From Lachnospiraceae bacterium (GTDB taxonomy: Bacteria > Bacillota > Clostridia > Lachnospirales > Lachnospiraceae), in assembly GCA_017518735.1 (NCBI GenBank), contig JAFWTY010000007.1, forward strand, positions 62,001 to 126,000: a stretch of DNA of 64,000 bases. Direction: 5' to 3'. Below, in pieces: positions 4,100 through 34,301 of the stretch. The notes under the pieces are model-generated. The model had not been told where the DNA came from and ran no database searches. It worked only from the letters and a program-made list of their open reading frames with translations. Within the stretch, counting starts at the first letter, position 1. Each line of letters begins with the position of its first letter. A program made the position numbers and the translations under genes.

Positions 4100-7000
4100 A
4101 TGGGACAGACAGTAAATCAATTTAAACAGTTATTGGAAAACAGAAAAAATGAACTGTCGCAGATTCAGGATGCAGCGCAGAAGAAGCAGAAAACAGCGGA
4201 ATTGATTCTTCTTACGCATATGTATAACAAATACGGAAACGGCTGGGATCGTCCTCAGATGAAGAAGCAGTTTGAGACCCAGATCCTCAACTTCAATCCG
4301 GAACCGAAATATACACAAACCATTGCACGAATCAAGACAAATATGGACAATCTTACGGTACGTCTGGCCTGCACAGAGCCGAGACCGTTCCCGGAAGAGC
4401 TGTATCCGTATGCCGCAGAACCCGAAAAACTGACAAACGAAAAGATGAAAGATATCCGGAATACCTTATATGGTAAAGGATATCCTTTTGACATTTACAA
4501 GGTTCCCGGTGAAGGAATGGGAGAGGAACAGCTGAAGGCAATCCACAACGACCTTGGCTTAAAACCCGACAATATCAAGGAGGAAGTAACGCCTCTTACC
4601 GTTAAATTTATCGGCCAAAATGAAACGGTCCTCAAACGTTTCGATAATTATACGGCTCCTGTCGGACTGCTCACCGGCAGAGGCTTCACCAATTCCAGTA
4701 CATTCCGCTTTTATCTGATGGCGAAAAAGGGATTGAGCGTTCAGGATGCGATGAAATACGGTCCCGATTCCGAAGGATTCGAGAATGATTTCAAAGAATT
4801 TGAACAGTTTTTAAAAGACCATCCCATCAAAGATACCGAGACGAAAAAGCTTTCGGACGAGGAAAGGGATCAGAATACAAAAGAATGGCTGGATGTTTTT
4901 GGAAAAGCATCGGACAAATTTGCCGAGTATAAGATTCCGGATATTGATTATAATAATCCGGAAGCCGTAGAACCGTACAGAAACGAGTTTCTCTTTCTGT
5001 CTCCCCTGATTACGGATTTGGAGCAGCAGGTGGAACCGTTCTTAAGTGCGGCTGCTCCTTCTTTATCCCGTCTTAAGGGAGAAGAAGTAAAACTGAAAGC
5101 TAAAATGAAGCCGGCACAGGAGATTCGTAAATTTTCAAGTGCATTTGCTACAGGAAATACCCTGCCGGAAGCTCTCTTAAGGGGAAATCCGAAGGCGGCG
5201 GCAAAAACGACGGCCGTTCAGAAAATCGTTTTTGCAAATGAAGTTGCGCCGAAATACAAAGGAAAAACCGGAAAAGAGCTGGGTTCGGATGTAACCGTAA
5301 AATCTCTCTATGACGGAATTGCACAGCTTCGAATGGTGCAGGAAGCAAATACACATGATCAGATTACGTTCGACAATGCCAAGGAATACCTGCAAAGCGG
5401 TGGCGGAAACTTAAAGGATGTTGTTTTAGATCATTATCAGACATTATTAGCAACCACCAGAAAAGAATCAGCCAATCAGGAACAGATTTCCCACGGCCAG
5501 AGCGTTTTTGTAAGTAAAGTACAAAGTGAAATCGCGGATAATCCTCACTATAAGGGTGTCTTAAGAGATCTTTTTAACAGCGGATTAAGCGGAGAAGACA
5601 TTCTTGCCAAATTCAAGGTGGAAGAAGACAGAGCGGTGGAAAACGACTTAGATGTTCTCTTTGACCACGAATTAAGCGAACAGATGGCACAAAGACAGGC
5701 GGACAGGGATTATCTGATTGAGAAGGTGGATTTCTGTTTCCGTAAACTTTTTGTGGATAACGGACAGGTAGATTATTACAGGCTTGCCGGTGTGGACAAT
5801 CCGCTTGGTACCATCCGCGTAAACGGAAAGACCGCGGAAGAACTGTGGGGAGAAAAGTATAAAAACATTGAGAATCCCGCAGATAAGGAACTGCTTTATA
5901 AATTAGAGATTATCAATGCCATGGTAAACACGATTGCTCATGTTACCATGGATCATTACATGATAAACGATAACGATCAGATCGTGCCAAACGGAACCAT
6001 TGACCTTTGTGACGATCGCCTGCACATGGAAAGAAAGAAATCTTTCCTTCGTGAAGTGGAAACTCTCGGTACGAAGATGCGCGAAATCAAGGCGGCAACG
6101 GCTGAAAGACCGCAGTGGCTTCAGCCCGGAGCACAGGCATTACGCGACGAAATGGGAAGAAAGGCAGATGCCGTTATTAAAGAGTGTAATCTGCGCTTCG
6201 GCCTGTACGGAAAACTCAAGCCTGCGCTTGAGGAATACGAGCTTGCTGCCGAGAACTTTTACAATAATCAGATTTCCCTGATGCATACCAATAACAGGGG
6301 TCAGGCGGAGATTGCCCTTGCGGAGCAGGAAAAACGCAAGGCATTAAATGATATTCGTGAAATCAAAAACAATATTGAGAAGTATGCAAAGAATCTGAAA
6401 GTGGAAAACTCAGATCTGGAGTTGGGTGCAAATGATTCTGCCCGTTATCAGTTTGCAAAAATAAAAAGCGAAATAGAACAAAGCGTTAAGTTAAAAGGTC
6501 TTTCCGAGGCAGCGGCAGAGCTTCATCAGGAGGAGGCGCTTCCGGAGGAACTTGGATGGATTGACCAAATTGATGATGCGGACGAAGAACTGACAAATGA
6601 GCAGACGAAGCTGTTAAAGGAAGCTTCCGGATTCTTCGATAAGCAGGAATTGGACCGGATGACGGCAAACTATACGACTTCCATTATGGATATTATGAAT
6701 ATGCAGAATGTGGGAGAAACCGGGAAAACGGGTGCCAAGATTCTGGATGAAAACGGATTCGGAACACGTGAAGGAACCCTGCAGTGCTATTTTGCATCAT
6801 ACTTAATGTCCGAAAAAGGACTTAGTGCCAAAGACGCTCTTGAAATCGGCAATACGCTTATTCCCGTCACGGATCCGAAAACCGGCGAAGTAAAATACCC
6901 TGCCGGGAGGGAACAGACACTTCAGTATGAAAAAGATTTCATGCAATTCGTGCTCAATTACCCGATCGAAAAGGAAAACGCTGATAAGGAAACGACGGAA

Positions 7001-10000
7001 AAATCAATCGGAAAATGGGCAAAGGTATTTCGGAATGCCCACATGAAAGTCAAAGAATATAAGCTTCCGGATATCGACTATACCGATCCGAAACAGGTAA
7101 AGGATCATTTTGAGAAATTATATTATTTGGGAATTTTCTCCGGAGATGCATTCCAGGAATTTGACGCAATGGCTCGGTCGAGTGCAAATACCAAATATTC
7201 TTCCGTTTCCAATGTTGCGGCAAAAGAAATGGGCGGATACAAGAATTTCTGGGATACATACCGGTTTTTCAATGACATGCAGGGCCTGACACTGGTCGGT
7301 TACCGAAACGGAAATGAACTCAAAGAGTACAAAAGCGTATGCCGAATCGGCTTCATGGCTGCAGGGCGTTTCCTCGGCGGAAGAATGATGAATAAGATCG
7401 GCGGCAAAACGCTGGGAGACGGAATTACATTGTTAAGACCGTCGATTTCGATTTTGGAAGATTCGATAATGTCTACGGGGGGTATGTTGAACAAATATGT
7501 CTATACCACCCAATTCCCTGTGGAAAGTCTGGTCAACAGTAAGAAGGGACTTCAGTATCTTTTCGGATTTAACAGGGAGAGCCTGGAACAGACTGCGGAC
7601 GCATTGGAGAAGGATGCACTTAGCGGCGTGGGAAGAGACCGGTTTGCACTTAACTCTCACTTTAAGATGGGTATTTTTGATGCCGAACCGTGGCCGGAGG
7701 GTCTTCGTGAGCGCTTTTCATCCGTTGGAGAATCGGCACAGGATATGGAAAAATTCCTTGCGGAGAATGCGACGGAAACCTGCAATGTGATAGACTGGGC
7801 AGACAATCAGATTTCCGGGATGTTTGATATGGGAAGACACGGTCTGATCCATGAGTATGGATTCAACGATTCGGACATGTTCCTGATTGACGGACAGACT
7901 CCGGCGCAGAAATACGGCGAAAAATATGCGCACATTCAGGATCCCGACGAGAAAGAGCGTTACTTCAAAGCAGAAATAATGCGCTCCATTGCAAGCGGCA
8001 GACAAGAGGTAAAGGTTCGCAATCTTTATCTGGAAACGGACGGCAGGATCACGGAAGGACCCGCGACGCTTCGGTATATGAAACGGGATAAGGTGACGGA
8101 ATTCGTAAACGAATACCAGAATTATAAATTACAGCGCAAGAACCTTTTATCCCGCCTGAACCAGATGAAGAAGAACCTTGCCGAAACGCAGCAGAATCCG
8201 AAGTCAAACTTTACGCGTGGGGAAGGGGAAGAAGGCTCGCCGGAATACCGGGCTTATACCAAAAGCATACAGGAATGTATCGATAAGCTTTCCGGTTGGA
8301 ACGGTGTTGGAGAAAAGGCTGTATTCGGTGCACAGCTCAGAACCGCTCTGCAGAACCTGGAGAGAAATGCAAAAGCATATTATGAGAAACGAAAAGGGTT
8401 CTTATTCGGACCCCAGTCCAAAGAGGGTGTCATTCGTCTTCTCGAATCCGAAAAAGCCTCAACCGGTCTCGTATCGCAGTTTGATGCCTTAAGAAGAACG
8501 TTTCAAAGCGACCAGTACGTAAACGGACGTACGTTGAAAGAATCCAGCGAAAGAGACCTGGAAATCTACTATAAGAAAGTACATGACAGTTTCTTAAAGG
8601 TTCCGGTACAAAATGAAGCGGAAACGGAAGATGCATATGCAAGAGCGGAGATCAAACGCCTTCTTGATATGTATAAGAACTCCGTCCGTATAAAAGAGAT
8701 CAATACCAAACCGGAATTAAAGAATGAGAAAAATGCGGCGGACTATCTGTTTGGCCGTTATGAATACCTTATGGGACCCGCTCCTGTCGGAGAAGAAACT
8801 AAGAAGTTTACCCTGGAAGATATCCGTGATGTGGAAAAATTCCCAGAAAGACTGGAGTTTTTGGCAAAACATGCGCCGTTCCAGATGGCCATGAACAACA
8901 ATCCGGAGCGTACCATCCGTCTGTGGCAGCAGCTGGAAGCCGATACCGCTTCCGTTACTACGGCTAAGAAGACGGAATATGATAATCGGATTAAGGAAAG
9001 TGGTTCCCTTTCCGATTATGTTGCCGGAAACAATGCGGCGGTTCAGCCTGCCATGCCGGCGGCGGAGACAATCAAGAGAATCAACAATATCGAGGATCCC
9101 GTTGAACGTCAGAACGAAAGGATTCAGCTCGGTATCCGGCTTACCGAAGCAATCGTGATGCAGATGCAGTCTTCCGACAGCCCGGATACACTGTTCTTCC
9201 GCACGCTGGTTACCGGAAAGTCAGCATTGCTTGAGGGCTTTAAGAATACGATCCACAATTACATACTTGAAAAAGGCTATCTGGAGAATGACAAGATAGA
9301 GGATACCCTACGCCGTCTGGAAAACGGAGAACTGCGCAGGGAAGCAATGGATCAGATCACGAGAAAATCTTCGATCGATCGTGCAAACCGTCTTGCAAAT
9401 GAAAAAGAAAAAATAGCAGAATCCCTCGGAAAAGTCGGCTTTATCACGAATGCGCAGGGAAATCTTACGGAGCAGCAGTTTGAAGATTATGCGGCGGAAA
9501 CGGGATTTGACATGGCAAATACGTTCGCTAAGGAATTTAACGACAGCGCGGATCTCTTAAAACAGCCGATTTCTTATACCGTAACGCAACCCGGCCAGAA
9601 TCAGGGGGATCCGGAAGTTGTAGTGGCCAAGAACGTACAGCCTGACGCCGAAGTCTTTAAAAATGTCGGTATTTCCCAGAGAAATGATGCGCTTCAGTCG
9701 CTCTTTGTTTCCTGGGTTATGGCACAAAAGGGAAAAGAATTCAAGGAAGCTCTTAAAATCTGTACGACCACCGCATGGGCTGAGGAGAATAAAGAAGAGG
9801 CTAATCAGGCGAACCGGTTCCGTGCGGAATTCTATGAATTCTGCGAAAAGAATCAGATTCTGGCGCTTCAGAAAGCCGGAAACAAAGAGGAAGCGGAACG
9901 CGCCGTCCGGGAATGGGCAAACGTCTATAAGAAAGCTTCCGATATGATGAAATCCTATGAGTTCCCGAATATCAATTACCGCAATAAAGAAGAGATTAAA

Positions 10001-13000
10001 ACAAACATGAAGGAACTGGTCGGAGTGACCGGATTCATCGGAAATGTCAGACAGGAATACAAGAAATTTTTCGAAAGCAGTCAGGCTGTGAATGCAAAAC
10101 GAATCGCGGCTGAAGAGATCGGCAGGAAAGGGTTCGATGACAGTACGAATTTCTGGATCGGACTGGAAACTGCAACCTCATCCTTCCGTCAGGGGTATTG
10201 TACAAAGAAAGAGAAATCTCTTTATGCCGGAAAAAGTATCAATGCTTTTAAAAACGACATCCTTGTCACCGCCGTAAACAGAAAACTCGGAAGCGACAGA
10301 ATGCAAAAGACCGTAGGTCTTAAGGCGGAACAGATTGTTGATCTGATGGGTAAGACCAACGGGCTTCTTACCGAGAAAAACAAAAACATGATGGTGGTGT
10401 CTGCGGCAGCAGACGGCGGATACGATGCACTTTCCACAGCAGCCATAACCAATTACATGACAGGAATCAACCGCTCGGGAGTAGAAAAGAGCGTAACGGT
10501 TCTGGAAGGCCTTAAGTCCGGGGATGTGTACGGGGATGTGCTTAACGCTCAGTTCAATGCAATCGTGACATTCCGTGACAACTTTGATTTTGCAGGTCAG
10601 ATGGAGACGCTGGCAAATCTTCCGGACGGAAATGAACATGTTCAGGAGATGCTTGATTACTTAAATTCCACCCTTGAAAACGGAAAGAGTGTCAAGGATT
10701 GGATGGCAGACCGTTTCGATCTTCTGTTCAATGAAGGAACCAGAACGACCTTCCAACTTGCGGGAGTAGCACCGATCGATACCCTTATGATCGGAAACAT
10801 GACCGTGAGAGAAAAATTTGCAGACAAATATGCCGGAATCGAGGATGAAAAACTCAAAGAGCAGCTGCTTTGTCTGGAATTTATAAAGGAAATGGCAATC
10901 GGAAGAGAAGATCTCGTGGTTCGCACTTTTGAGCTTTCCGAAAACGGTCTAACGGAAAGTGCCATTCCGGCAATCGCAGTCCTGAACAGAGACAGCATGC
11001 AGAGATTCTCGTATTCCGTACATGCGTATGAAATCGGACGCAGGGAGATGATCTCCGATTTAATGCCCGTAATTGAAGCCCTTAAGAATACACAGCAGAA
11101 CAGGGAGTATAATTTCTCTTCCCTCGGAAGCGAGGGCGGAGAAGAATACCGCAAGATGACAACGGATCTGTCTAGGGTTTACGCATTTTTAAGAAGCGAG
11201 GACAATTCCGACCTTACACAGAAACAGATTCTGAATGCACTCAACAAACTTGAGCAGTCTGCAAGAACATATAAAGAAACCCATACAGGCTGGTTTGTGG
11301 GGCGTTGGCACGCATACGGACGTCAGCGTCTGGAACAGTCGGATAGGCTGCTTAAGATGGTTCCGATGTTAAAACAAAGATTCCTCGGAATTCGCAAAGA
11401 CATTGACTGCAATATGGCAGTCTGGAACGGGAAAAATGCCCAGGAGGCTCCGTTCAGCCGTATTAAGGAAGTAAACGGCAAGCTGGAAGGAAAGTTTAAC
11501 TTAGAAGTTAAGGATGCGGATTTCTACGATTACTATTTCAAAGTAGGTGCCGTAAACCGTGCTTTGAATAAACTTCGCAACAGACAGCTTCCGGAACAGA
11601 ATGCGGAGAATATCCGCAGAGTTATCCGTTATCTGGAAGGCTATTTTGTCGACAGAAGAGATACCGGTGAACTTACCATGGAAGATGTGAAATATCTGGA
11701 AGACGAAGGACGGATCACGGCTCGTATCAACGAACTTGCAAACAATCCTATTTTCCAGAAATGTATGGAAGACAATCCCGATTATGCAATTGAAAACTGG
11801 CGTGCCATAGAAGAAATTGCAAGGGAGATGCGGGAATCGGCCGCTTCGCAGGTTCAGAACGTAATCAACCGGTACGGTGCTGCGGAAGCCTTTATTGCGG
11901 GACTTGAGGGGCCGGAACAGAATGTACGCTATACGAAGCAGGATGCTTATAACAAAATGATAGCAGACAATCAGATATACGCAGAGCGCTCCAATACCTA
12001 TGAAAGACTTGCAACCCTGATGCTGGCCAGACTCCTTGCCGAAGATTCCGAGTTTTCCTACAGACTTCGCCTGTATATCGCGATGGGGGATTCGGTCGAA
12101 AACCAGATCATTTCCTACGTAAAAAACGGGTTACGGATGTCAAATGCGCTGGACGGGGACCATTTTGTACGTACATTTGAAGCAATGCATACCGGTCAGC
12201 TGAAGGAAGAAGTAAGACAGATTATTATGGAGGCCGGTTATCTTAACGGACCAAATCCCGCAGCGGCTGACGAAAATGAGATCGTAGATAACCCTGTGGA
12301 AGAACAGGAAATCATTCTGAACGAGGATGAGCCGGAAATCGTTCCGAACCTGAATGCGCAGAATATAAACATTCAAAACGGAAATATCGAAAATGAGAAT
12401 GCCGGGAATGAAGAACCGGTCGGAAACGTTCAGGAGAATGATGTAAACAACAGCATAAACGTCAATGTAAGTATTCTGAATAACGAGATTCCGGAAGTGA
12501 ATCCGAATGCGGATGTTCATGAAGAAGAAAACCGGATACAGAATCAGAATGCAAACCCGGTTATTGAAGACGACCTTGACCTGAATATCGGAAACGACGA
12601 ATTCCACTTCAATGGTGCCGGGGTCAACATCAACGTGGATCTTCGTCTGGATGATGTATTCCGGGATATCAATATCGAACCGATCCCGAATGCGGACGGC
12701 GGAAACGACGAAATCGATTATAACGAAGACGAATACAACGACGCAGAGAACGAAATCAACGAAAACGAGATCAACGAAAACAAGATTAACGAAAACGAAA
12801 TGAAAGAGGAGAAGAAAGCAGAACCTCCCAAGAACGAGATCAAGGAGGAGAAGAAGCCGAAACCTAAGAACATTATAATTGAGGAGGACGAAGAAGAGAA
12901 AGAACTTGTCGGTCCGGGTCCTGAGGATGAGAGAGCGGAATATATGAAGTCCGCAAAGGTTTATGAAGATGAACTCAAACAAATGGGCAAGGGCGCTTAC

Positions 13001-23000: not shown

Positions 23001-25143
23001 CGCAATCTCAACGGATAGCGGCTCCGAACTGCAGAAAAATGGGTGTTCCGGGTATCAGGAATCTTTGGGTTACTACCTTGGCAAAGGAAACACTTCGTTC
23101 GAATCGAAGGTTCAGAAAGCCTACGAAAAAAAGTTTGAAGAAAAAGCAGCAAGCTATTCGAAGAGTATCCTTGGGGCATGCAATAAATTCACCGCTTCAG
23201 CCGCACGATTCGGAAAAGATCTTTTTAAGAATGTCGGCGACAAAGCGGAAGATATGCAGAACTTTTTGAATGGAACCGCTTTGGCATACGGTAATCAGCC
23301 CAAAGCTGCGAAACTTATCGTGCAGGATGCGATGGAAAACCTTCTGCTGAACAACTATTATCGCAGAGTTACTATGGAACTCGGACTAAGACACAGTCAG
23401 TGCTTCAGAATCAACGGAAAGTCCGCAGAGGAGTTGTGGGGAGAAAAATACGCGAATGTGCAGGATGCCGATGAAAAGGAATTCCTGTATCAGGCAGAAA
23501 TCGTAAGACTCGCAGCGGAAGGCGGATCCAAAATCGAACTCCTTCATCTCGAGGTACATCACATACCGGGCAAGTACAGTATTGTTCCGGGTGGTTACGA
23601 TGTGGCAATGGAAACACCTGAAAAAATGCGTGAGATTGTTCAGTCTTCCCGTATCTATGATGTTGCCCTGGAGGAATACTTAAACGAATTAAAGGAAATC
23701 CAGAAGACGCTGTTGCGTACGCAGGATAACAAATCCGCCAATCGTTCCGGAAAAGACAGTCCTCGGGAAGGATCGGATTACTATCAGAATATGATGGTAT
23801 CTTTGGATAAGCTGATCGTGAATCTGCAGACCGAGGTAGAAAGCGGTTTTGACGGCCCTGAAACCGATAAGCTCGACAGAATGATTAATGAAATGCAGAA
23901 CAATGCCGATACGTATTATGAAAACCGAAAGGGTGTTATTTTTGGACCGATTCATGATTACGGACAGGTTCGTCTTAAGAATTCCAAGAAACTGGATGAA
24001 CTGACGGCAGGTTTCAAGGAACGTTTCAGAGTTCTTCGAAACGGATTTTCAAGCGGACTTACCGCTTCGGACGGAATTAAACTGAACAATACCTCTTCCA
24101 AATATCGCCGGTTATTCGTAGATGAGATCGGGGATTATATGAAGATTCCGAACAATAAGAAGGATGTGTATGAAAAGAAATATGCCGAGCTCGTTGCGTT
24201 CCATAATCTCGAAAAAATCAATACGATGCAGATTCCGACAAAGCCGTATCCGAGAAAGAACTATGAAATGGCTAAGAAGTATTTGAAACACCTCGTTACA
24301 AACGCGCAGGGATACAAAGATCTGAGCGTTTCGGATTCACGCAAATTCGAGCATTCCGCGGATGAACTCGAAAAACTTGCCGGTAATCCCGTATTCCAGA
24401 AACTGATGCGAGACAATCCCGATTTTACGGTGAAAAACTGGAGAGAAATTGAACAAAAAGCCGAAAAAAAGGTTGACCAGTTTGATAAAGAAATTGATCT
24501 GGTCATTGACAAAAACTCCTGCTATTCCCGTTGCCTTGTAGGTTTTGGAAAGAATGGCTTTTTAACACTGAAGGGAAAGGCCAAACCGGAACTGGATGCA
24601 ATCTATACGGAAGTGGAAGATTACAAGAAAGAACATCCCAATGCCGACATGAAAGACCCCGATTTGAAAGAGATTATTTTAGCCTGCAGAAAGCAGAAGG
24701 AAGATCAGAACTATTCGGACTGCGGAATAAAGATTATGCGTATGGATGCGAAAGGTTTAAAGCAAACATACAACAAGCTTACCACGATCATCCTGACACA
24801 GATGCTTTATGCGGATAACGAGGTATCCGACTTAATTCGTCAGAGCATGAGTGCGGATGAATTGCTGAATAATCAGGACCCGCAGCATGATAAGCAGACG
24901 ACTTACAAAGAAGTCGCAAAGTCGGTTCTGAAAAAACTCCTGAATGGAAAGGCACTGGAAGGGGATAACATCGAGAACACCTTACGTGACTTGGACAACG
25001 GAAAGCTGGCAGGACACATGACGAAGGAATTTGCCCAGGAGTTTGTCGAAAAGAGGGAACAGATTAAAGTAGCCGACAAGCTTGCGGAAGAAGCCGGAAA
25101 TGCCCATCATAACCAGGCACCGGGAGTGATGAACCCGAACTGA
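20071..25143 (+). CDS. Giant modular protein of 1690 aa, unknown function (two-module family A)
   Basis: The frame is open further upstream (to 19825), but ATG 20071 follows an AGGAG site (CAGGAGAAAAAA) and lies after promoter P3, so I place the start there. The protein contains two family A modules: YKFPDIDYSNP near bp 20530 and YKLPVIDYTDK near 22580, with the NGKSAEELWGEKY-type block near 21325 and 23405. The distance between modules (about 683 aa) matches modules 1 to 2 of the 3138- and 3002-aa proteins. It ends right after module 2 with a short Ala/His/Asn tail: the third module, linker and C-terminal domain are absent. No signal peptide or membrane helix. A 149-bp gap with a weak TATAAT (25207) but no strong terminator leads to the 3002-aa gene, so they are probably co-transcribed. 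Confidence 0.85.
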   Translation: MPYTEEQKRDFDKKAGFEKRKFEDIYFDIAKRVNRLPELPGVDPHDQLAKRPLPKEISDKYGRAGFVSDRTTSHTSIFYFYLMGVKKIPFKDLVKITPESPEFEGYLADYDKFLSENPVKAFGEFPEPDPVTRKKSIGNWMNLFADCGEMMKDYKFPDIDYSNPEEVKKYEDELILLSKVVMDYSQELDRFVEDNSYDKISTVKGGTMAYWTKRSYGDCLQSTMGFLNEGFFRSPMQAGPNRSSKVDIMNSAVQRHSFVKESAFFKGKTVEQYLHAKEVNVTLGSYNQMLKAKMIEKIPELSEKDAVDYLTGSNKNIEPKLEEISNDVKNKQRINFNVVTLDRYNRSFPTFLKDLKERDNFINALNNAKGKDNIDLYMHVKSDAGSALRNLTERSFTKLYQGGGATAMSFLKKDALDLIRIGGMTAEQRWGRKYAFLDNPEEKKMMYRIEIMREMYEGKTDITMDLYFFNEEGKLYNSGVCYIAMKPATVIRLANLKAYVDGLRKQYRQTYRELQNAENGLSEEEKQLLNNDQKYAAFKGKLAEVIHKSNTQDFDGNLGLLLNAMDEYKAAAKDYVATHETQHSPNANIRALEEQWVKTAKVAALGVDKYSHEIKIQAANFGLIPGQDEELTAPKYSYHRLEKIITEQNNLRPNTELLEQHKEMPKDSMLPDDEIAWAFPPEGEKHPDFNKELKEEKLLQLDQHGGGFLNDIRIENNYAKFGTRDFKPGDKRIERIGLSGDRPPTTQSIFLLWVLGTQEDFKVENIKELFESPRIGADGTVLNQDLIDKRKDLMKKFFEFYEKNPTEDNKSDKQFKESIENWMTVFNKATEKMGQYKLPVIDYTDKDQVAPYIEDFSLIAKLSVDCCQELPHIIGGQSGKTITGKQAAGTTGGVNNYDKLLAKWEGYQCVIDPVYHGYASVFVLPYNTLSEYAVNACRQATARAFCKTQVNPYAGKTMSETVAELNTSVLYRIEVDNAISTDSGSELQKNGCSGYQESLGYYLGKGNTSFESKVQKAYEKKFEEKAASYSKSILGACNKFTASAARFGKDLFKNVGDKAEDMQNFLNGTALAYGNQPKAAKLIVQDAMENLLLNNYYRRVTMELGLRHSQCFRINGKSAEELWGEKYANVQDADEKEFLYQAEIVRLAAEGGSKIELLHLEVHHIPGKYSIVPGGYDVAMETPEKMREIVQSSRIYDVALEEYLNELKEIQKTLLRTQDNKSANRSGKDSPREGSDYYQNMMVSLDKLIVNLQTEVESGFDGPETDKLDRMINEMQNNADTYYENRKGVIFGPIHDYGQVRLKNSKKLDELTAGFKERFRVLRNGFSSGLTASDGIKLNNTSSKYRRLFVDEIGDYMKIPNNKKDVYEKKYAELVAFHNLEKINTMQIPTKPYPRKNYEMAKKYLKHLVTNAQGYKDLSVSDSRKFEHSADELEKLAGNPVFQKLMRDNPDFTVKNWREIEQKAEKKVDQFDKEIDLVIDKNSCYSRCLVGFGKNGFLTLKGKAKPELDAIYTEVEDYKKEHPNADMKDPDLKEIILACRKQKEDQNYSDCGIKIMRMDAKGLKQTYNKLTTIILTQMLYADNEVSDLIRQSMSADELLNNQDPQHDKQTTYKEVAKSVLKKLLNGKALEGDNIENTLRDLDNGKLAGHMTKEFAQEFVEKREQIKVADKLAEEAGNAHHNQAPGVMNPN

Positions 25144-25292: not shown

Positions 25293-28200
25293 ATGGATGG
25301 AAAAAACCTGAATCAGAATAACGGACAACCCAATCAGAACCCGAATCCGCAGATTAACAACGGACAACCGATTGTAAACCCGAATCCGCAGATTAATAAC
25401 GGACAGCCGATTGTAAACCCGAATCCTCAGCCGGCAAATCAGGACTCCGATGATATTTATGTTTCGAAGTCTCTGAGAATTTTTGAAAAGAAAGAACCGG
25501 CTCCCCGAGCACAGCTTGGTCATTATGTCAGTGAACATCCCAGATATGCGGAACTTCAGAAGGCCACCGGAAATATGGGTATGTTGACGGGACGCCCCAG
25601 TACCAGCAAAAGCGTATTCGGAATCTGGCTGATCGGTAGAGAAAAGGATCCTCTTACCCTAGAGCAGGCAATGAATATGGTTCCCGGGAACCCCAAGCTG
25701 GAGGAGGAATTTAACAAATTCGTCGACTTTGTGGTTTCACATCCGACCAAGAGTACCGCGGACGCTCCGATTAAAGAAAACGATGCCGCAAATAATCTAA
25801 AAGCCTGGCTCGATGTAGTAGGAAAAGCTTGCGATGTTATCGGAGATTACAGATTCCCGGATATTGACTACAGTAACCCGAAAGAGGTGGAAAAGCATAT
25901 TGAAGAATTCAACGGGTTGGGAAGTTTTGTCTGGGACCTCGGTCAGGAGGGAGAAAAGGTTGTAAACCAGATTGCGAATTTCCCGAATCAATTGAAGGGG
26001 GAAAGAAAGGCGATTTCGGAAAAAATGAAACCGCTTTCAACATTCCAGGGATTCACAAATGCTTTTGCTATCGCAAATACGGAAAATCGGGACGACCTTC
26101 AATTTGAAACTAACATATACCGTCTGGCGGAAAACAGAATTCAATTTGGTATTCTTGCCAAGAAGAAGTATAGCGGGAAAACCGTTAAAGAGGCGGCAGT
26201 TAAGAATGCAAGTGAATTGTACGAGCCGTTTGTTGGCGCATATTCACAGGCCAATCCTTCCAATCACGGAATAGAAGATCCGAAACAGAGGATGGACATG
26301 GCCAAAGGATTCCTGCGCGGTGAGGATAACGGATTTAAAGAAGCCGTAATAAGGGATTATGAGAATACCAGAAAGATGACCCGCATCAAAATGGTGAATG
26401 CGGAACAGTTCTCGAATTTTAACAAATACGGGAATACACTGTTCAGAGAAATGAGGTCACACCGGGCTACCTTTGAGGAAGGGCTTTCTCCCGAAAAGAC
26501 GGCAGAAGAAATCAGTGCTTTCATAAAAACCGATGCCGGAAAGGCTGCTGTGTCTGCCGCACTCAAAGCATATGATGACGCTTTTGTCAAATTTGACCAG
26601 GACCGGTTTTATGAATTTGCCAAGAAAAACCCCATGGATACCATCCGAATCGGAGGAAAGACTCCGCAGGAACTCTGGGGGCAGAAATATGCGTCTCTTA
26701 AGAAAAGAGACAGGGAAATAATGTTCAAGGTAGAACTTGCTGCTGCTGCAGTTATGGGCAACGAGGGTATTACCTTTGAACAATATGCGGTCAATGAACG
26801 TGATGAAGTCGTAAAGATCGGGGAATACATAGCAGTTCCCGGTCCTGCAACACTGGAAATCAGAAGACAGTTCCTGCGGGAAATCCAGGGCCTTGGAGAC
26901 GAGGTAAGATGGGCGAAGAACTTTCTGGAGAAACCTTCGGTTCCGGTCGATGAGAGTTTAAAGCCGATTCATGAACAACTGAAAAAGCTTAATGGAGAGA
27001 TCTTAAAGGATAGTTCCATGAACTCCATGAAGTCCTATGTTCTGTTTAAGAGAGAGGTAGAAGAATACCTTGATGTTGCAGAGGCATATTATAAGGGCGC
27101 CGAGGAAAAACTAAGAGAAAAGAATGCAAGTCCGGAAACTCTGCAGAAGTTACAGAACGAGAAGGAAAACGTCATCGGTCAGGTTAAAGTGCGTTTGACA
27201 CAGGCAGAAAAAGTCGGAGAGTCGATGAAACTGGTTCCGCATGAACTGGAACTCCCGCCGGAAGAAGACACAACCTATACCTTCAGTAATATCAAAAACG
27301 CCATATTTAACATAACAGAACTGAAATACGACAGGGCGTTTGTTGTCAATGATAACCAAACAATCTATGATCAGAAGTTTTCCTGGCTGAATCGTAAAAT
27401 AGAAAAGAATTCTGTTCTTCCGCAAGACGGCTGGAATCAGGTCAAATCAGCCGCGAAGTTTGATATCCTTGCAACCGAGGCAGGGGAATACGATAAGCCG
27501 ATCGCAAGCGTTTTGCAAAATCGTGAATTGAAAAAAGCTCTTACGGATGCGGGCTTACCCGTAAAAAGATCTTCTTCCCTGGAGTCCATTTTCAATATAT
27601 GGTTGATGGGCCATAAAGGTTTTTCCGTTACCGAGGTAGCTAAATTTTCCTCAAAATTTGCCTCTTCGGGAACAATCCGGGACAAGAACGGAAAAGAATT
27701 CAATTGCAAAGACCTCATGAATGATTTTTTGGATTTTGCGAAAAAGAATCCTTATGATGTCAAGACCGAAACCAGAGATGCGTCGAAGACACGTCTGAAA
27801 ACTTGGCTGGAAATTTACGAGAAAGCCACGCAGGAGATTAAAGATTATACGCTCCCGAATATTGATTTACTGGATCCGGACCAGATTAAGGCACATGGAA
27901 GAGAATTCATGCTGCTTCGTAATATCGGTGTGGACGGCGTTCAGGAATGGGAACGCTTTATGAAGGGTGACAATAATATACGCGGTACATCCATGTCTTC
28001 CATCGGAGAAGAGGCACTCGGAAGCAGAGAACGTTTCTGGGGAATTCATTTCTTTTACCAGGATATGCAGTCGACACTCAGCGGTTTGCTTAACGGATAT
28101 CTTAACGGTATTTACCGCAATGAACCCGGATCTTTGTCTCTGGCGGCATATCGTCGCTGGAAATTTGATAAGGAATTTTCGCCTTACCGCGGAAAAAAAC

Positions 28201-31200
28201 TCGGCACTTACTTTGAGGATCATAAGCTCGATAATATTTGTTCCATGAAGAAGTCGATTAATACCGAGAGTAACCTTTCGCAGTCAAATACAAGCGGAAT
28301 AGAGATTGATTACAATAAGGGCGTTGCCTTTCTTCTGAATCATAAAAGGGAGGAATATAATGAATTCCAGACCCGGTTCGAGGGAAAAACCATTCAGGAT
28401 ACTGTTAATGAGGAAGAACCGAGATCACAGAGAGGTTATGTTACATCATTCCGTTATTCCTATTTGGCGACGGAAGATTCGTTGAAGTTTGCCGGATTGA
28501 AGGATGATGCCGCTTCCATGGAAGAGTTCCTGAATCAGGAATACAAGCCCGGAATCCTGTGGAAAGATCAGGTTGGTGCCATTTTTATGGACAAGCTGTT
28601 TGAAAACAATTTCAATCAGTACTATTTGGCAAAGGGGCTCAATCTTTCGGACGGTTTCATGATTGACGGCGTATCCGTGAAAGATACTTTTGCCAATAAA
28701 TACAATCATATCCGGGATGAAGTACAGAAAGAGCAATTGTATTGCGCCGAACTTTTAAAGGCAATTTCAAGGGGTGAAAAAACCATCACCGCAAGGATTT
28801 TTACCGCAAAGAACAATCAACTCGTTGAACTCGAGCCTGTTGTTTGCGCTTATCCGCGTGCAAAAATGCAGGAGTTTGCTCAGAAATACGAAAAATATGA
28901 AGCAAATCGTGATGAATTAATCAACCAGCTTGAGGAAATCAAGAAAGAATTACTGGAGACACAGAGTGACAAGGAAGCGAACTTCGGAAATGATGCAGAA
29001 GAAGGTTCCGATTTCTACCAGAATATGACGATTGCACTCCAGAATGCGATCAATGCACTGCGAAATGAAAAAGACAACGAAGACGGTGCTACTTTCGAGG
29101 AAACAAATTCGAAGCTTCGTACGATGCAGGAGTATGCAGACAGATATTATGAAGCCAGAAAGGGTAGATTCTTCGGACCTGTAACCGGAGACGGACAGAA
29201 ACGTCTGAAGTGTTCCAATAAGTTAAAGACCGGATTTGCGGGACGTTACATGGAAATGAGAGAGAGCCTGAAATCCGATATTATTGCCGGCTCGTCCGGA
29301 ATTCCTTTCTCCGAACTTGCGGATGCGGATGGAGTTCGCCGCGGATATAACCATCTGAAAAAAGATCAGCAGCTGAAGGTGCTTGGAAAAGAGGCAGCGG
29401 AAGCCGAGATAGTAAAGGAACGTATTCGTACCGCACTGGAAGCAATCAGGGGACGTGTTGACGAAGACGCTGCCAAGACTGCCGAAGAAGGACTTGCCCA
29501 AAACTACCTGATTCGCTATTTTGAAGCCCGAATTGCGCCCGTGAAGGAAGGCGTTACGCCGACCTATGCCAAGATTTCGGACCTTCGTATGATTGAACAT
29601 TTTGACGAAAGAGTTGCAGAACTTGCAAAGAATCCTGTCTTCGTTTCCCTTATGAAGAAAAATGCAGAAGACTGTATTAATCGCTGGCATGTAATCGAAG
29701 CAAACGAAATAGAACTGCGTACATCTTATCAGAATGATATTGCAAAGAAGATTCAGGATTACGGTTCTCTTTCCAGAGCGGTGGCAGAACTGAACAACGT
29801 TCCCGAAAACGAAGAAAAGACACTTGCCGGAGTTTTGAGGGATGTTTATGCCGATCAGCAGAATCAGGAATTCATTGAAATGACAATCAGTTCCTATTAC
29901 GATAAGGTTGCCGAAATTGTTTTGAGTCAGACTCTGAGCGGTGAAAACGAAACAGCCCGTCAGATGCGTCTGGAAATTGCAAACGACAAGGCGATGTATG
30001 ACAAATACTTAAGTATGGCATCGGACTATCTTCTTTCCAAAGAAGCCCTTTCTTCCGATAATCTTTCCAAACTGGATAACTCGATTAATCAAAGAAGATT
30101 TGCCACAAACTGGACGAAGAAGCTGAAGGGTGATTTCAATCGTGAAAGAAAGAACCAGGCGAGAGAAACGGAACAGGCAGTCGATGCCAAAATGCAGGAA
30201 CTTTCCTTCATGGACGATCTTGATGGAACCATGACGATGGATGAGTTTGTAACTCTGGAAAGAGCGATCGGAGTAGAATACCCCAGAAAGATTCTGTATA
30301 AGACTTTAGACGCTGCCAATATTATTATGAAGCCGGAGAAACTTACCTATACTAACGAGAAAGGTGAGAAGATTGAGATGGATTTCACGCCGAATCTTTA
30401 CGGCGGATGTAATATAAATACACAAAGACAAACTTCGGTTTCGAATGTCTTTCTTATGTATTTGATGGGAAAACATAAGTTTTCTTTCACCGAAGCTATG
30501 AAAATTGCAAATACCATGCCGGTGGAAAATGAGCAGAATCAAGTCATCAATCAAGCGGATGTTGATCTGGCCGACAAGTACAGAACGGAGTTTAAGATTT
30601 TTGTTGCACAGAACCAGGTTGTTCCGAATGCCAATGATCCGGAAAAGGGGAAGAAGGCTTACAAAGCTTGGGCAAGGCTTCTTATTGACGCATCCGAACA
30701 GCTGAAAAACTATAAGATTCCGGATATCAACTATCGCGATCCCGCCCAGGTTGAGGAACATTATGAAGAAATCTACATGTTGAGTCAGGCTTGCACGGAT
30801 GTCGATCAGGAAATGGACAGGTTGTTTGGAACCAATGGCACTGTGGATGGCTTAAGTTGTGCATATGAGGAAGCCGGAGGAAGTATTCAATTTAATACTT
30901 GCAAGAATCGCTGGTATGCAATCAGCGGTCCTTTGCAGGCTCAAAAAACTGCATATTCGGTAAAGAGTCGTGCTGAAGTGAATAATTATTATGTCGGTCA
31001 ACCGAGAAGAAGATATGGTGAAAGATTTCATGAGATTGCAATCTCAAGAGAAATATTGATTCAGACACTTCAGCCGCTTCGCGGAAAAACCGTGGAGGAG
31101 GCTGTAAAGATCGTTGGACAGGATAATCTATATTTGAAAGGATTCAACTCTTCATTCCCCAGTATTGGAGATGAGGAAGAAAACCCGATTGAGGGAGTAA

Positions 31201-34200
31201 ATCCCAAAACCTCACTGGAGTATATTGTCGGAAAGAATCAGGCAGACTATGTCAGAAAGATTCGTCCCGCTGTTGATAATTCCAGAAAAGAATATCAGCA
31301 TTTAGCATACGAAACGGATCAGCTCGGTATGCTGAACAAATTCTGGAATAACCTTGATTTCCAGGAAAAACTGGAGGACAACGAAGCCAACAGGGCGAAC
31401 TATGCGGAAGAGATTGAAGCAAAGAAAAACTTTGCGACCAATCGAGACTGGTTTGCGGCTTATCCGGAAGATGCGGAGTCCATGAAAAAACTCTTTGACG
31501 GAGAAATCAGACAGGGTGTGAAAACGAAAGACTGGGTTCGTGAGAGTGCGAATAGTTGCTTCTTTAATGAAGATCGTTATCAGCTTGCCAAGATACTCGG
31601 TATAGAAACGGGAGAACTCTTCTTAATCAACGGAAAGAACTTAAAGGAACTGTACGCCGAAAAGTACAGTGACATAGCGGATGAAGAAACCCGTAACGGT
31701 CTCTATCGTCTGGAATTATTGAAAGCAATTGCCAAGGGAGATTCCGTGGTAGAACTCCGTACCTTCAAATTTGAGAACAATGTTTTGGTAGAAGCTCCCC
31801 GGGTTATTGTGGCGGAGAAGAGGGAAGACATGAAGAAGGCGGCGGATTCCGTCCATGTTTATACCGCCGGTTTGGAACCGATTGAAAATGCGTTGAAGAA
31901 ATTTAAGCTCACCCTGACGGCAAATCAGATCAATCCGGAGGCAAATTTTGACGGGGAAAATATCTATCATCCGCTCACAACGGAAGGATCCGAAGAATAT
32001 AAGGATATGACGAAACGATTACGTAATCTGTTGAGGGAAATCAACGACGAAAGAATCGGCAAAAGTCTTACTCGGCAGGAAGATCTCGACAAAATGATCG
32101 AGGGGCTTGTGGAATCTGCTAACCAATATGAAAGGAAGAATAACGGAAACTACAGAGAAGGCACCAGGGAAAGAATCAAGCTGGATGTTGCCAAAAAGAT
32201 CCAGGAGGTGGTTCCCGAACTTCATAAGCAGTTGAAGGCGCTCCGGGCAAACAGAACTTCTTTACAGGGAACGCATAAGCTTTATACCATATCGAAAGGT
32301 CCAAACAAGTTTGGTATGGAAATAGCAGATGGTTTCCACAGAGCTCTGGGAGTTGAAAAGAAGGAAGATAATTTTTATAAGAAAAAGGCATATGGTATTA
32401 TGCTTCAGAGCAGCGTAAACAGCAAACTCGAGCAGGCATTTGTCGGAGCGAAATATCCGAAGGAGAATTATGAACGTGCGAGAGAAGCGGTTCTCGGAAT
32501 CTATCAAAAGAAGATAAACGACGGAATGGTTACGCTTGCGGATCTCGATGCAATGGAGCGTTATAAAGACAGAGTGGAAGAACTTGCAGGAAATTCCTTC
32601 GTTCAGTCCTGGATGAAGAGGAATCCGCAGGAGTGTATTGCCCGCTTGGAAGAAGTGGAAGCAAAGGAACAGCAGCTCCGTGATCGCTTCATCGGAGAAA
32701 TGAACACTGCCCAAAACGGACGTACGGTACTGGCAGAATATGTGACCGGTATGGCACCGAATTTTGTACAGCCTGCTCCCGGAAACGAAGCGGATGAGAA
32801 TGATCTTTTTAACGGAATCGGAGAACAAGGTCAGCAGTTCAATTTAAGAATCAATGAAGCCGCATCGCATGAAGAGAGACGCACGATGGCTCAGAATATC
32901 GTTCTCAGCAGCATCAGAACCAAGAATGAAATGCAAATAACCGGTCTGTATGAGAAACTTGCCGATGTTGTAGTATGGCAGGGCCTGATCAATCATGAGA
33001 AATACGGCAAACCCGTTTTGCAGGGAATTGCTTTAAATGAAGAGGTATACGAGCAGTTTAAGCAAAAGACTTTGCAGTACTTAAAGGATAACAAGGTTCT
33101 CGAAAACGGTAAAATTAAAGAACTCTTTATCAAACTTGACAACGGACAGTTTGCGAACGAAGTCATGGATAAGATGAGTGTGATTGCTGCCGAAGAAGAA
33201 CGTGTACGTGAAGCGCAACTTGCCGCACAGCGTGAACAGGAGAGACTTGCGGCCGAGCAGCAGTTGCAGAATCCGGTAGTACAGCAGCCGAACCCCGTAG
33301 TTCAGAATCAGGCTAATCCTCAGCTGAATCCTCAGATTCCGCAGCCGGTTCCCGAGATTCAGAACCTGAATCAGGGTAATCCGCAGCCTAATCCTGTAAT
33401 TCAGAATCCGAATCAGGCTAATCTGCAGCTGAATCCTGTAATTCAGAATCCAAATCAGGATAATCTGCAGCCGAATCCTCAGGCTAACATCAACCTTGGT
33501 GAAATCCTCCTGGATGCAAACGAACAGGATAAGATTGTAATCAAGATTGAAGAAGAAAACAACAAGCCGATTATCGAAGAGGAGCCGGAACCTGAGATTG
33601 AGGATCCGAATAAGAACGTGGAGCCGAAGAAAGAGGGACCGAAGGTAGAAAAGAAGGGTCCGAAGAACGTAATCAAAAAAGAGGAGCCAAAGAATCAAAA
33701 GGAGGATATATTCGGTAAGAATAACAAACAGGAAGATGTATTCGGAAATAATAAAAATAACAAGGATTATGCATTCCCCTGGGATTCCGAAGAATTTATG
33801 AAGGATGCACAACAGGACTATAACCGGGAGACATTCAATTATCTATTGGATGCCAAGAAGGCAATGGAGTTTATTAAGGGCATGCCGGAAGGAGTAATGG
33901 ACAAGAAAGGTAATCTTTACCAGGATAAAATAAATGCCGTGGTTAAGGTTCATACCGCACTTACCATTATCATGGGAGACTATGTGAATCCGAAAACAAT
34001 AAATCCGAAGAGCGTTGAGAAGAAGATTTTCGAGAAGAAGGAAAACCGCTACGGCCTCATGGATATGATAGACCACTTCTCGGGCAGGGAAATCATGGGC
34101 TTTATCAAAAAGGGTAACATTGATACGGTTATGAGGGATTGCTTTAAGAAAGCTCCGAAGAATAAAGTGGATAATTATTCGAAGAAAGAAAACGAGAATC

Positions 34201-34301
34201 AGAAAGAAGTTCCAAAGGGCGGTATGGGTCCCAAAGGAAAGATCTATGAAAGAGCACGAAGAAAGGAGCCTGCCCTTATGGCAGGCTCCTTTTATGATTG
34301 A
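25293..34301 (+). CDS. Giant modular protein of 3002 aa, unknown function (three-module family A)
   Basis: N-terminal disordered region with three 13-residue NGQPIVNPNPQIN repeats, then three family A modules: YRFPDIDYSNP near bp 25845, YTLPNIDLLDP near 27845 and YKIPDINYRDP near 30715, with ELWGQKY-type blocks near 26645, 28657 and 31621. LAKNPVF- and LAGN-type ends with a run of polar helices close modules 2 and 3. A long Asn/Pro/Gln-rich linker (about 33250-33500) and an acidic then Lys-rich stretch precede a C-terminal domain (about 33830-34150) related to that of the 3138-aa protein. No signal peptide, membrane helix or known domain. ATG 25293 follows AAGAAGGAAG. The last residues are encoded by the transcription terminator itself, which is odd (see findings). 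Module spacing of about 665 and 957 aa mirrors the 3138-aa protein. Confidence 0.85.
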   Translation: MDGKNLNQNNGQPNQNPNPQINNGQPIVNPNPQINNGQPIVNPNPQPANQDSDDIYVSKSLRIFEKKEPAPRAQLGHYVSEHPRYAELQKATGNMGMLTGRPSTSKSVFGIWLIGREKDPLTLEQAMNMVPGNPKLEEEFNKFVDFVVSHPTKSTADAPIKENDAANNLKAWLDVVGKACDVIGDYRFPDIDYSNPKEVEKHIEEFNGLGSFVWDLGQEGEKVVNQIANFPNQLKGERKAISEKMKPLSTFQGFTNAFAIANTENRDDLQFETNIYRLAENRIQFGILAKKKYSGKTVKEAAVKNASELYEPFVGAYSQANPSNHGIEDPKQRMDMAKGFLRGEDNGFKEAVIRDYENTRKMTRIKMVNAEQFSNFNKYGNTLFREMRSHRATFEEGLSPEKTAEEISAFIKTDAGKAAVSAALKAYDDAFVKFDQDRFYEFAKKNPMDTIRIGGKTPQELWGQKYASLKKRDREIMFKVELAAAAVMGNEGITFEQYAVNERDEVVKIGEYIAVPGPATLEIRRQFLREIQGLGDEVRWAKNFLEKPSVPVDESLKPIHEQLKKLNGEILKDSSMNSMKSYVLFKREVEEYLDVAEAYYKGAEEKLREKNASPETLQKLQNEKENVIGQVKVRLTQAEKVGESMKLVPHELELPPEEDTTYTFSNIKNAIFNITELKYDRAFVVNDNQTIYDQKFSWLNRKIEKNSVLPQDGWNQVKSAAKFDILATEAGEYDKPIASVLQNRELKKALTDAGLPVKRSSSLESIFNIWLMGHKGFSVTEVAKFSSKFASSGTIRDKNGKEFNCKDLMNDFLDFAKKNPYDVKTETRDASKTRLKTWLEIYEKATQEIKDYTLPNIDLLDPDQIKAHGREFMLLRNIGVDGVQEWERFMKGDNNIRGTSMSSIGEEALGSRERFWGIHFFYQDMQSTLSGLLNGYLNGIYRNEPGSLSLAAYRRWKFDKEFSPYRGKKLGTYFEDHKLDNICSMKKSINTESNLSQSNTSGIEIDYNKGVAFLLNHKREEYNEFQTRFEGKTIQDTVNEEEPRSQRGYVTSFRYSYLATEDSLKFAGLKDDAASMEEFLNQEYKPGILWKDQVGAIFMDKLFENNFNQYYLAKGLNLSDGFMIDGVSVKDTFANKYNHIRDEVQKEQLYCAELLKAISRGEKTITARIFTAKNNQLVELEPVVCAYPRAKMQEFAQKYEKYEANRDELINQLEEIKKELLETQSDKEANFGNDAEEGSDFYQNMTIALQNAINALRNEKDNEDGATFEETNSKLRTMQEYADRYYEARKGRFFGPVTGDGQKRLKCSNKLKTGFAGRYMEMRESLKSDIIAGSSGIPFSELADADGVRRGYNHLKKDQQLKVLGKEAAEAEIVKERIRTALEAIRGRVDEDAAKTAEEGLAQNYLIRYFEARIAPVKEGVTPTYAKISDLRMIEHFDERVAELAKNPVFVSLMKKNAEDCINRWHVIEANEIELRTSYQNDIAKKIQDYGSLSRAVAELNNVPENEEKTLAGVLRDVYADQQNQEFIEMTISSYYDKVAEIVLSQTLSGENETARQMRLEIANDKAMYDKYLSMASDYLLSKEALSSDNLSKLDNSINQRRFATNWTKKLKGDFNRERKNQARETEQAVDAKMQELSFMDDLDGTMTMDEFVTLERAIGVEYPRKILYKTLDAANIIMKPEKLTYTNEKGEKIEMDFTPNLYGGCNINTQRQTSVSNVFLMYLMGKHKFSFTEAMKIANTMPVENEQNQVINQADVDLADKYRTEFKIFVAQNQVVPNANDPEKGKKAYKAWARLLIDASEQLKNYKIPDINYRDPAQVEEHYEEIYMLSQACTDVDQEMDRLFGTNGTVDGLSCAYEEAGGSIQFNTCKNRWYAISGPLQAQKTAYSVKSRAEVNNYYVGQPRRRYGERFHEIAISREILIQTLQPLRGKTVEEAVKIVGQDNLYLKGFNSSFPSIGDEEENPIEGVNPKTSLEYIVGKNQADYVRKIRPAVDNSRKEYQHLAYETDQLGMLNKFWNNLDFQEKLEDNEANRANYAEEIEAKKNFATNRDWFAAYPEDAESMKKLFDGEIRQGVKTKDWVRESANSCFFNEDRYQLAKILGIETGELFLINGKNLKELYAEKYSDIADEETRNGLYRLELLKAIAKGDSVVELRTFKFENNVLVEAPRVIVAEKREDMKKAADSVHVYTAGLEPIENALKKFKLTLTANQINPEANFDGENIYHPLTTEGSEEYKDMTKRLRNLLREINDERIGKSLTRQEDLDKMIEGLVESANQYERKNNGNYREGTRERIKLDVAKKIQEVVPELHKQLKALRANRTSLQGTHKLYTISKGPNKFGMEIADGFHRALGVEKKEDNFYKKKAYGIMLQSSVNSKLEQAFVGAKYPKENYERAREAVLGIYQKKINDGMVTLADLDAMERYKDRVEELAGNSFVQSWMKRNPQECIARLEEVEAKEQQLRDRFIGEMNTAQNGRTVLAEYVTGMAPNFVQPAPGNEADENDLFNGIGEQGQQFNLRINEAASHEERRTMAQNIVLSSIRTKNEMQITGLYEKLADVVVWQGLINHEKYGKPVLQGIALNEEVYEQFKQKTLQYLKDNKVLENGKIKELFIKLDNGQFANEVMDKMSVIAAEEERVREAQLAAQREQERLAAEQQLQNPVVQQPNPVVQNQANPQLNPQIPQPVPEIQNLNQGNPQPNPVIQNPNQANLQLNPVIQNPNQDNLQPNPQANINLGEILLDANEQDKIVIKIEEENNKPIIEEEPEPEIEDPNKNVEPKKEGPKVEKKGPKNVIKKEEPKNQKEDIFGKNNKQEDVFGNNKNNKDYAFPWDSEEFMKDAQQDYNRETFNYLLDAKKAMEFIKGMPEGVMDKKGNLYQDKINAVVKVHTALTIIMGDYVNPKTINPKSVEKKIFEKKENRYGLMDMIDHFSGREIMGFIKKGNIDTVMRDCFKKAPKNKVDNYSKKENENQKEVPKGGMGPKGKIYERARRKEPALMAGSFYD
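25320..25436 (+). repeat. Three 39-bp tandem repeats in the N-terminal coding region
   Basis: Units encode NGQPNQNPNPQIN, NGQPIVNPNPQIN and NGQPIVNPNPQPA; copies 2 and 3 are nearly identical at the DNA level, which points to recent duplication. Confidence 0.85.
33360..33485 (+). repeat. About three 42-bp tandem repeats in the NPQ-rich linker
   Basis: Units encode 14 residues of the form NPNQANLQLNPVIQ. They extend a looser Asn/Pro/Gln-rich stretch that begins near 33270. Edges are approximate. Confidence 0.75.
34262..34296 (+). terminator. Terminator of the second giant operon, inside the 3' end of the coding sequence
   Basis: Perfect 13-bp stem AAAGGAGCCTGCC / GGCAGGCTCCTTT with loop CTTAT and a T-run. 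The stop codon of the 3002-aa gene (34299-34301) lies after the hairpin, so the hairpin encodes the final residues. It sits between convergent genes, 20 bp from the stop of the minus-strand 1926-aa gene, and may act weakly for that gene too. Confidence 0.92.

What the first reader, a model, noticed from the sequence alone, without database searches (positions are those of the whole stretch)
4100..34301. Family of giant soluble proteins built from eight copies of one large module
The 3138-, 1690- and 3002-aa proteins contain 3, 2 and 3 diverged modules. Each shows the W..V..KA......Y.(I/L/F)P(D/N)I(D/N) motif and, later, a block like NGKTAEELWGEKY with KE.LY..E after it. Motif positions: 4930, 7060, 9950, 20530, 22580, 25845, 27845, 30715. 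The spacing between modules repeats (about 665-710 aa, then about 957-963 aa), so whole multi-module genes were duplicated. No signal peptide, membrane helix or known domain; this is roughly 24 kb of coding DNA. This is the best candidate for an undescribed system.
Basis: partly seen in the sequence, partly recalled or inferred. Interest (0 to 1): 0.85.

Follow-up and report, generated by a model that had tools for sequence, protein, structure and literature searches.

The report
Giant proteins tied to secretion machine
A gut (probably rumen) bacterium carries giant proteins built from repeats of one undescribed domain, and their shared switch, shared tail tag and distribution across genomes tie them to a type IV secretion machine, so they look like cargo that this Gram-positive bacterium exports into other cells or its surroundings.

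Summary
In detail: eight copies of one ~550-780 aa helical module lie in three proteins (E<1e-110), with no Pfam, NCBIfam, PDB-sequence or Foldseek match. The proposed 'isolated undescribed system' is only part of it. A promoter TGTTGGAC-N3-TGTTGGAC-N9-TAnnnT precedes the window's two gene clusters and, genome-wide, mostly giant proteins from at least eight unrelated families, many ending in a short 'GP' tail. The same promoter drives the pilin gene of a type IV secretion system (T4SS: pilin, VirD4, VirB4, VirB6-like; no relaxase found) encoded 6-23 kb upstream of the window. In other genera a diverged version (TGTTGCGC...) again precedes both giant genes and T4SS genes. The T4SS VirD4 is present in 18 of 20 module-bearing genomes and 1 of 34 module-free ones (p=4e-11). 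A response regulator in the window (2045-2854) sits directly before the T4SS pilin gene in two related species and fits as activator. Best explanation: the giant proteins are substrates (effectors) of a dedicated, non-conjugative T4SS of Lachnospiraceae. Whether Gram-positives have such effector T4SSs is a stated open question. Secretion itself and the target cell are not shown.

The parts
3..1604 (+). SpoIIE-type PP2C phosphatase with Cache sensor part; the gene begins before the window (G000:C40:61376)
   Evidence: PF07228 1.6e-46
1568..2008 (+). RsbW-like kinase (HATPase_c_2)
   Evidence: PF13581 2.6e-22
2045..2854 (+). Response regulator with OmpR/SARP-type DNA-binding part; candidate activator of the regulon
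   Evidence: Response_reg 3e-25, Trans_reg_C 1e-4 below cut-off; orthologues directly before the T4SS pilin gene in G002 and G025; that it activates is inferred
2994..3027 (+). Regulon promoter: TGTTGGACTTCTGTTGGAC, N9, -10 TAATCT
3116..3149 (+). Second regulon promoter (1 mismatch): TGTTGGACTTTTGCTGGAC, N9, -10 TAAGAT
3183..4082 (+). 299-aa protein, homologue of the C-terminal domain of P0005 and of two regional proteins outside the window
4100..13516 (+). P0001, 3138 aa, N-terminal domain, three modules, disordered linker, C-terminal domain and tail
4664..6514 (+). module 1 of P0001
   Evidence: HMM 1.4e-111
6764..9028 (+). module 2 of P0001
   Evidence: HMM 8.8e-201
9677..11905 (+). module 3 of P0001
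   Evidence: HMM 8.5e-206
12929..13300 (+). C-terminal ~124-aa domain shared with P0004 and two other module proteins
13535..15916 (+). P0002, 793 aa, 18 bp behind P0001, probably same transcript; shares a ~100-aa domain with other giant proteins
19974..20007 (+). Regulon promoter: TGTTGGACAAGTGTTGGAC, N9, -10 TATGAT
20071..25143 (+). P0003, 1690 aa, two modules (mechanical ORF begins at 19825)
20263..22008 (+). module 1 of P0003
   Evidence: HMM 6.8e-127
22279..24546 (+). module 2 of P0003, modelled by AlphaFold (pLDDT 83)
   Evidence: HMM 1.3e-235
25293..34301 (+). P0004, 3002 aa, three modules, linker, C-terminal domain; no regulon site of its own, perhaps transcribed with P0003
25578..27176 (+). 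module 1 of P0004
   Evidence: HMM 1.6e-111
27555..29789 (+). module 2 of P0004
   Evidence: HMM 6.5e-200
30414..32753 (+). module 3 of P0004
   Evidence: HMM 7.3e-202
34316..40096 (-). P0005, ~1926 aa from the likely ATG, giant protein of a second repeat family with the tail PEGPKHGPL

Best explanation
The module proteins are substrates (effectors) of a dedicated type IV secretion system (T4SS) of Lachnospiraceae. Inferred working order: signals through a SpoIIE-type phosphatase, an RsbW-like kinase and a response regulator with an OmpR/SARP-type DNA-binding part (window 3-2854) switch on promoters with an 11-bp direct repeat placed 9 bp before the -10 box. That co-expresses the T4SS (VirB2 pilin, VirB4, VirB6-like, VirD4) with a repertoire of giant, cysteine-poor, helical proteins without Sec signals. 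Each carries a disordered basic tail, often ending in GP plus a hydrophobic residue, which the VirD4 coupling protein would recognise before the protein passes through the T4SS, probably unfolded, into a neighbouring cell or the medium. Shown: modules, regulon promoter, T4SS genes, co-occurrence, shared tails. Inferred: activation by this regulator, recognition of the tail by VirD4, translocation, target cell (other bacteria, rumen ciliates or fungi).
For: (1) Promoter: TGTTGGAC-N3-TGTTGGAC at 2994, 3116 (1 mismatch) and 19974 in the window; 7 matches with up to 3 mismatches against 0.47 expected. Four related genomes have 12-26 sites each, the backward control 0. The 62 sites share a -10 box at fixed distance: T 95%, A 94%, last T 85%. 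(2) Genes behind the sites are mostly giant proteins, plus the T4SS pilin gene in three species. (3) The cluster G000:C40:39-56 kb is a T4SS: T4SS_pilin 1e-13, VirD4 1e-51, VirB4 P-loop 5e-18; VirB4 8e-158 and VirB6-like 4e-46 to ICE models in the orthologous cluster of a sister species. (4) Other genera use a diverged repeat (35 hits, 0 in control) before giant genes and again before T4SS pilin, gpB and PASTA genes. (5) VirD4 of this type in 18/20 module-bearing and 1/34 module-free genomes, p=4e-11; within the genus 8/9 against 1/22, p=1e-5. (6) GP in the last 8 residues: 22/61 module proteins, 6/431 other ORFs; GP in the last 20: 15/31 regulon proteins of at least 400 aa without the module against 19/431, p=5e-11; these families are unrelated by profile comparison. 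(7) The response regulator's orthologue lies directly before the T4SS pilin gene in G002 and G025. (8) In G699 four module genes lead straight into RsbW and the T4SS genes. (9) One regulon member is an ADP-ribosylglycohydrolase (E=1e-39) with a long extension.
Against: No secretion or binding data exist. About half of the giant regulon proteins lack a GP tail. In this genome virD4 is interrupted by an in-frame TAG between membrane part and ATPase part. G014 has modules and T4SS but no TGTTGGAC sites; the distant genera show no 11-bp repeat upstream. G022 and G531 (84-86% complete) have modules but no T4SS found. The T4SS components resemble conjugative elements, so a DNA-transfer role is possible. 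No VirB8 or VirB1 component was identified. P0004 and P0005 have no regulon site of their own.
Confidence: 0.72

Rival explanations
1. The giant proteins stay in the cytoplasm (scaffolds or storage) and are merely co-regulated with the T4SS; the tail serves another role such as polar localisation or protease protection.
For: No signal peptide; helical AlphaFold model, pLDDT 83; no enzyme domain in 37 of 38 giant proteins scanned.
Against: Co-occurrence with one specific T4SS lineage across about 11 genera, the shared promoter in two diverged forms and a common tail on unrelated proteins are what a secretion substrate set would show.
Confidence: 0.15
2. The T4SS is a conjugation system (ICE remnant) and the giant genes are its cargo or regulatory passengers.
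For: Closest family models are ICE/conjugation proteins: CD1115 VirD4, Mbov_0395/0396/0397.
Against: No relaxase among 38 unassigned flanking ORFs, most from T4SS loci (25 of 30 matched families shown) nor in the annotated cluster; regulon genes lie on many contigs; the gene order pilin-gpB-VirD4-gpC-VirB6-VirB4-STAS-PASTA is largely kept across genera; no match in phage or plasmid collections.
Confidence: 0.08
3. The giant proteins are exported by another route, for example the type VII system.
For: The genome has a WXG100 cluster.
Against: Only 2 of 9 module-bearing genomes of the genus have WXG100 matches above the family cut-off, and G014 (100% complete, 8 module matches) has none.
Confidence: 0.03

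Closest known systems
Dot/Icm-type and VirB/D4 effector T4SSs of Gram-negative bacteria
   Same: Many large, diverse substrates without Sec signal, genes scattered in the genome, short disordered C-terminal signal (general knowledge), a coupling ATPase, common regulation.
   Different: Monoderm host; minimal ICE-like T4SS; proteins of 500-3700 aa; GP-type tail; no detectable sequence relation of the substrates to a known family.
Streptococcus suis 89K T4SS with SspA-1 (PMC4897608)
   Same: Gram-positive T4SS with a reported protein substrate; needs VirD4.
   Different: There the T4SS sits on a mobile island and transfers it; six of seven candidate substrates, SspA-1 among them, have signal peptides. 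Here no relaxase was found and the substrates lack signal peptides.
T4SS of Patescibacteria (PMC12102498)
   Same: Monoderm (MPF-FATA class) T4SS with VirB2-like pilin, mostly without relaxase, thought to be co-opted.
   Different: Other phylum; no defined substrate regulon reported in the passages read.
Pho-box and SARP-type promoters
   Same: Direct repeats with 11-bp period placed 8-10 bp before the -10 box, bound by OmpR/SARP-type proteins (general knowledge).
   Different: Repeat sequence is not one I know; the proposed activator is a receiver-SARP-like response regulator.

Membership tests
Type IV secretion system, monoderm type | VirB4 ATPase | tested here: met
   TraG P-loop 5e-18 in G000; NF045975 8e-158 in G002, 527 bits, below the equivalog cut-off of 590
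Type IV secretion system, monoderm type | VirD4 coupling protein | tested here: met
   PF02534 1e-51 in G000; CD1115 family 294 bits, over cut-off, in G002
Type IV secretion system, monoderm type | VirB2 pilin and VirB6-like membrane protein | tested here: met
   PF18895 1e-13; NF045849 over cut-off; NF045848 and NF045889 over cut-off
Type IV secretion system, monoderm type | VirB8 and VirB1 components | tested here: inconclusive
   gpB and gpC are conserved but match no family
Conjugative element (ICE) | Relaxase with the T4SS | tested here: not met
   No relaxase among flanking ORFs (25 of 30 families shown); whole genomes not searched
Dedicated effector T4SS | VirD4-dependent export of proteins | not testable with these tools
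   Needs an experiment
Dedicated effector T4SS | Substrates and machine occur together | tested here: met
   18/20 against 1/34 genomes
Type VII secretion substrates | Occurs with WXG100/T7SS | tested here: not met
   2 of 9 module-bearing genomes over cut-off
Any known protein family (module) | Sequence or fold match | tested here: not met
   Pfam, NCBIfam, PHROGs, PADLOC, PDB sequence, Foldseek PDB and BFVD: nothing significant
OmpR/SARP-type regulon | Direct repeats of 11-bp period close before the -10 box, regulator with winged helix | tested here: met
   Response_reg 3e-25 and Trans_reg_C 1e-4 (below cut-off) for 2045-2854; binding not tested

The most novel reading that the evidence does not exclude
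Lachnospiraceae of the gut possess a dedicated, non-conjugative effector T4SS with a dozen or more giant effectors per genome, aimed at eukaryotic cells such as rumen ciliates or fungi, or at other bacteria: a large effector-translocating T4SS in Gram-positive bacteria.
Probability: 0.55. Interest if true: 0.95.

Novelty: new variant of a known kind. Interest (0 to 1): 0.9.

Why it matters
[quoted passage not shown] it names one case, in Streptococcus suis. Here is a regulon with a machine, a candidate regulator, a promoter signature and a large candidate substrate set in gut commensals, which makes the question directly testable. It also gives a likely role to many giant 'hypothetical' proteins of Lachnospiraceae, and a promoter and tail signature by which to find more.

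Tried and rejected
Known-family and fold searches of the module: nothing; Foldseek's best hits are insignificant helical solenoids and membrane proteins. Phage or plasmid origin: no match. T7SS export: rejected by distribution. Name look-up in GTDB contigs with the window protein found nothing; closer relatives are Lachnospiraceae MAGs RUI524, RUG13462 and RUG12880, by their names rumen MAGs (inference). Partner-switching genes next to module genes were first taken as the link itself; they are better seen as part of the T4SS regulatory region. A second motif guessed for P0005 and G014 (TTTGCAACNTTTNCATAC) gave no match in the loci. Whether all giant families are remote homologues (which would make the tail merely inherited): profile comparisons say no (probability 8% or less), except P0005 with one regulon cluster at 48%. 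Genome-wide distribution of the module outside Lachnospirales: only marginal matches.

Full report
OBSERVATION. The three ORFs and eight modules are real. The second gene starts at 20071, not 19825: its regulon promoter ends at 20007 and an RBS precedes 20071. AlphaFold gives a confident mostly helical model (pLDDT 83, pTM 0.73) without a significant Foldseek match in PDB or BFVD. No Pfam, NCBIfam, PHROGs or PADLOC family fits.

FAMILY. The window is part of a 2.36-Mb genome (G000, contig C40:62001-126000). Related contigs with names are Lachnospiraceae MAGs RUI524, RUG13462 and RUG12880. The module occurs in 9 of 31 genomes of the genus and in a dozen of 397 genomes drawn from the family, thinly in the order, marginally in the class, and was not found in viral contigs, phages or plasmids. 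Many relatives are single-module proteins of ~950-1010 aa, others reach 3700 aa. Genes are scattered in unrelated neighbourhoods, so no operon partner explains them.

TAILS. The C-termini share a disordered basic linker and a short end with GP and a hydrophobic residue (GPAMGG, GPKLG, GPRM and the like). GP is found in the last 8 residues of 22 of 61 module proteins and 6 of 431 other ORFs (p=5e-17). Several of the 'other' carriers are giant unknown proteins too, including P0005 of the window (ends PEGPKHGPL).

PROMOTER. Upstream regions of module genes were enriched in TGTTGGAC or TTGTTGCG. The repeat TGTTGGAC-N3-TGTTGGAC occurs in the window at 2994-3012 (0 mismatches), 3116-3134 (1) and 19974-19992 (0). 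A scan of five genomes gave 16, 26, 12, 14 and 0 sites, and 0 for the pattern read backwards. In 62 sites a -10 box follows after 9 bases (T 95%, A 94%, T 85% at its first, second and last position). The geometry, 11-bp direct repeats just before the -10 box, is that of pho boxes and SARP promoters (general knowledge). The enrichment at period 11 and not at other periods was seen in other genera too.

REGULON. Genes behind the sites are giant proteins from at least eight families without detectable relation to each other, small pilin-like proteins, a SpoIIE phosphatase and a few signalling proteins. 15 of 31 regulon proteins of at least 400 aa without the module have GP in the last 20 residues against 19 of 431 controls (p=5e-11). 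This test is only partly independent, because the tail was first seen on module proteins. One member from another genus carries an ADP-ribosylglycohydrolase domain.

T4SS. The pilin-like gene of G000 heads a T4SS cluster at C40:39-56 kb: T4SS_pilin, VirD4, VirB4, a VirB6-like protein, STAS and a PASTA protein. Synteny holds in many genomes. The window begins inside the SpoIIE gene, followed by RsbW, the response regulator, two regulon promoters and the 3183-4100-13535 gene row; the T4SS cluster ends ~6 kb before the window. Orthologues of the response regulator sit directly before the T4SS pilin gene in G002 and G025. In other genera a diverged repeat (TGTTRY-N5-TGTTRY-N11-TAnnnT) stands before giant genes and before T4SS pilin, gpB and PASTA genes; 35 hits, none for the reversed pattern, in 563 kb. 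So the promoter sequence changed together in machine and giant genes.

CO-OCCURRENCE. A VirD4 profile splits genomes sharply: above 870 bits in 18 of 20 module-bearing genomes and in one of 34 module-free ones (G012, 69% complete); all others at most 112 bits (p=4e-11, within the genus p=1e-5). Relatedness of genomes inflates these p-values, but the pattern holds across about 11 genera. The comparison set was chosen by me: known carriers, the whole genus and twelve further family members.

MECHANISM. Best reading: substrates of a dedicated T4SS, with the tail as coupling signal. The T4SS has no relaxase among flanking ORFs. Immunity-gene-sized partners were not noticed behind the giant genes, which argues mildly for targets other than sister bacteria (inference, not tested systematically). 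Against: no experimental data, tails not universal, virD4 split by a TAG in this very genome, G014 and distant genera lack the same promoter. The T4SS could also serve DNA transfer.

NOVELTY. T4SS effector translocation is well known in Gram-negatives; in Gram-positives one case is reported and the question is called long-standing. The module family, the regulon and the combination were not found in the searches made here, which cover open-licence papers only.

LIMITS. ORFs and start codons in relatives were called by a simple script; genomes are mostly MAGs of varying completeness; whole-genome searches were capped, so the T4SS was not surveyed across the whole family and relaxases were not searched genome-wide.

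Noticed in passing
L276:5260-5300 (G000:C40:41260-41300), outside the window: virD4 of this genome is split by an in-frame TAG between its membrane part (93 aa) and ATPase part (568 aa); one frame of ~670 aa in most relatives.
   Followed up: partly
L195:5392-9859, L203:5679-10155, L221:3730-8407: A ~190-aa protein and a ~1290-aa giant form a conserved pair behind a regulon promoter in three species; a chaperone-substrate pair is possible.
   Followed up: no
L084:15661-17904 (G227): 747-aa protein with an N-terminal ADP-ribosylglycohydrolase domain behind a promoter of the diverged regulon type.
   Followed up: partly
window 13535-15916; L152:1554-4418: The 793-aa neighbour shares a ~100-aa domain with other giant proteins of other genera; no known family.
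   Followed up: partly
window 3183-4082 and 34316-40096 (-): A second repeat family: the 299-aa protein matches the C-terminal part of the 1943-aa ORF and of proteins at G000:C40:34.5-38 kb and 57.9-60.0 kb.
   Followed up: partly
G000:C3:101982-107207: Cluster of eight WXG100 genes (a type VII system), not correlated with the module.
   Followed up: partly
window 48254-54733: 2159-aa surface protein with repeats and a C-terminal SPKTG-like sorting signal.
   Followed up: no
T4SS flanks, alignment A4: 3 of 38 flanking ORFs are Rce1-like CAAX proteases and 5 match the His_kinase family.
   Followed up: no
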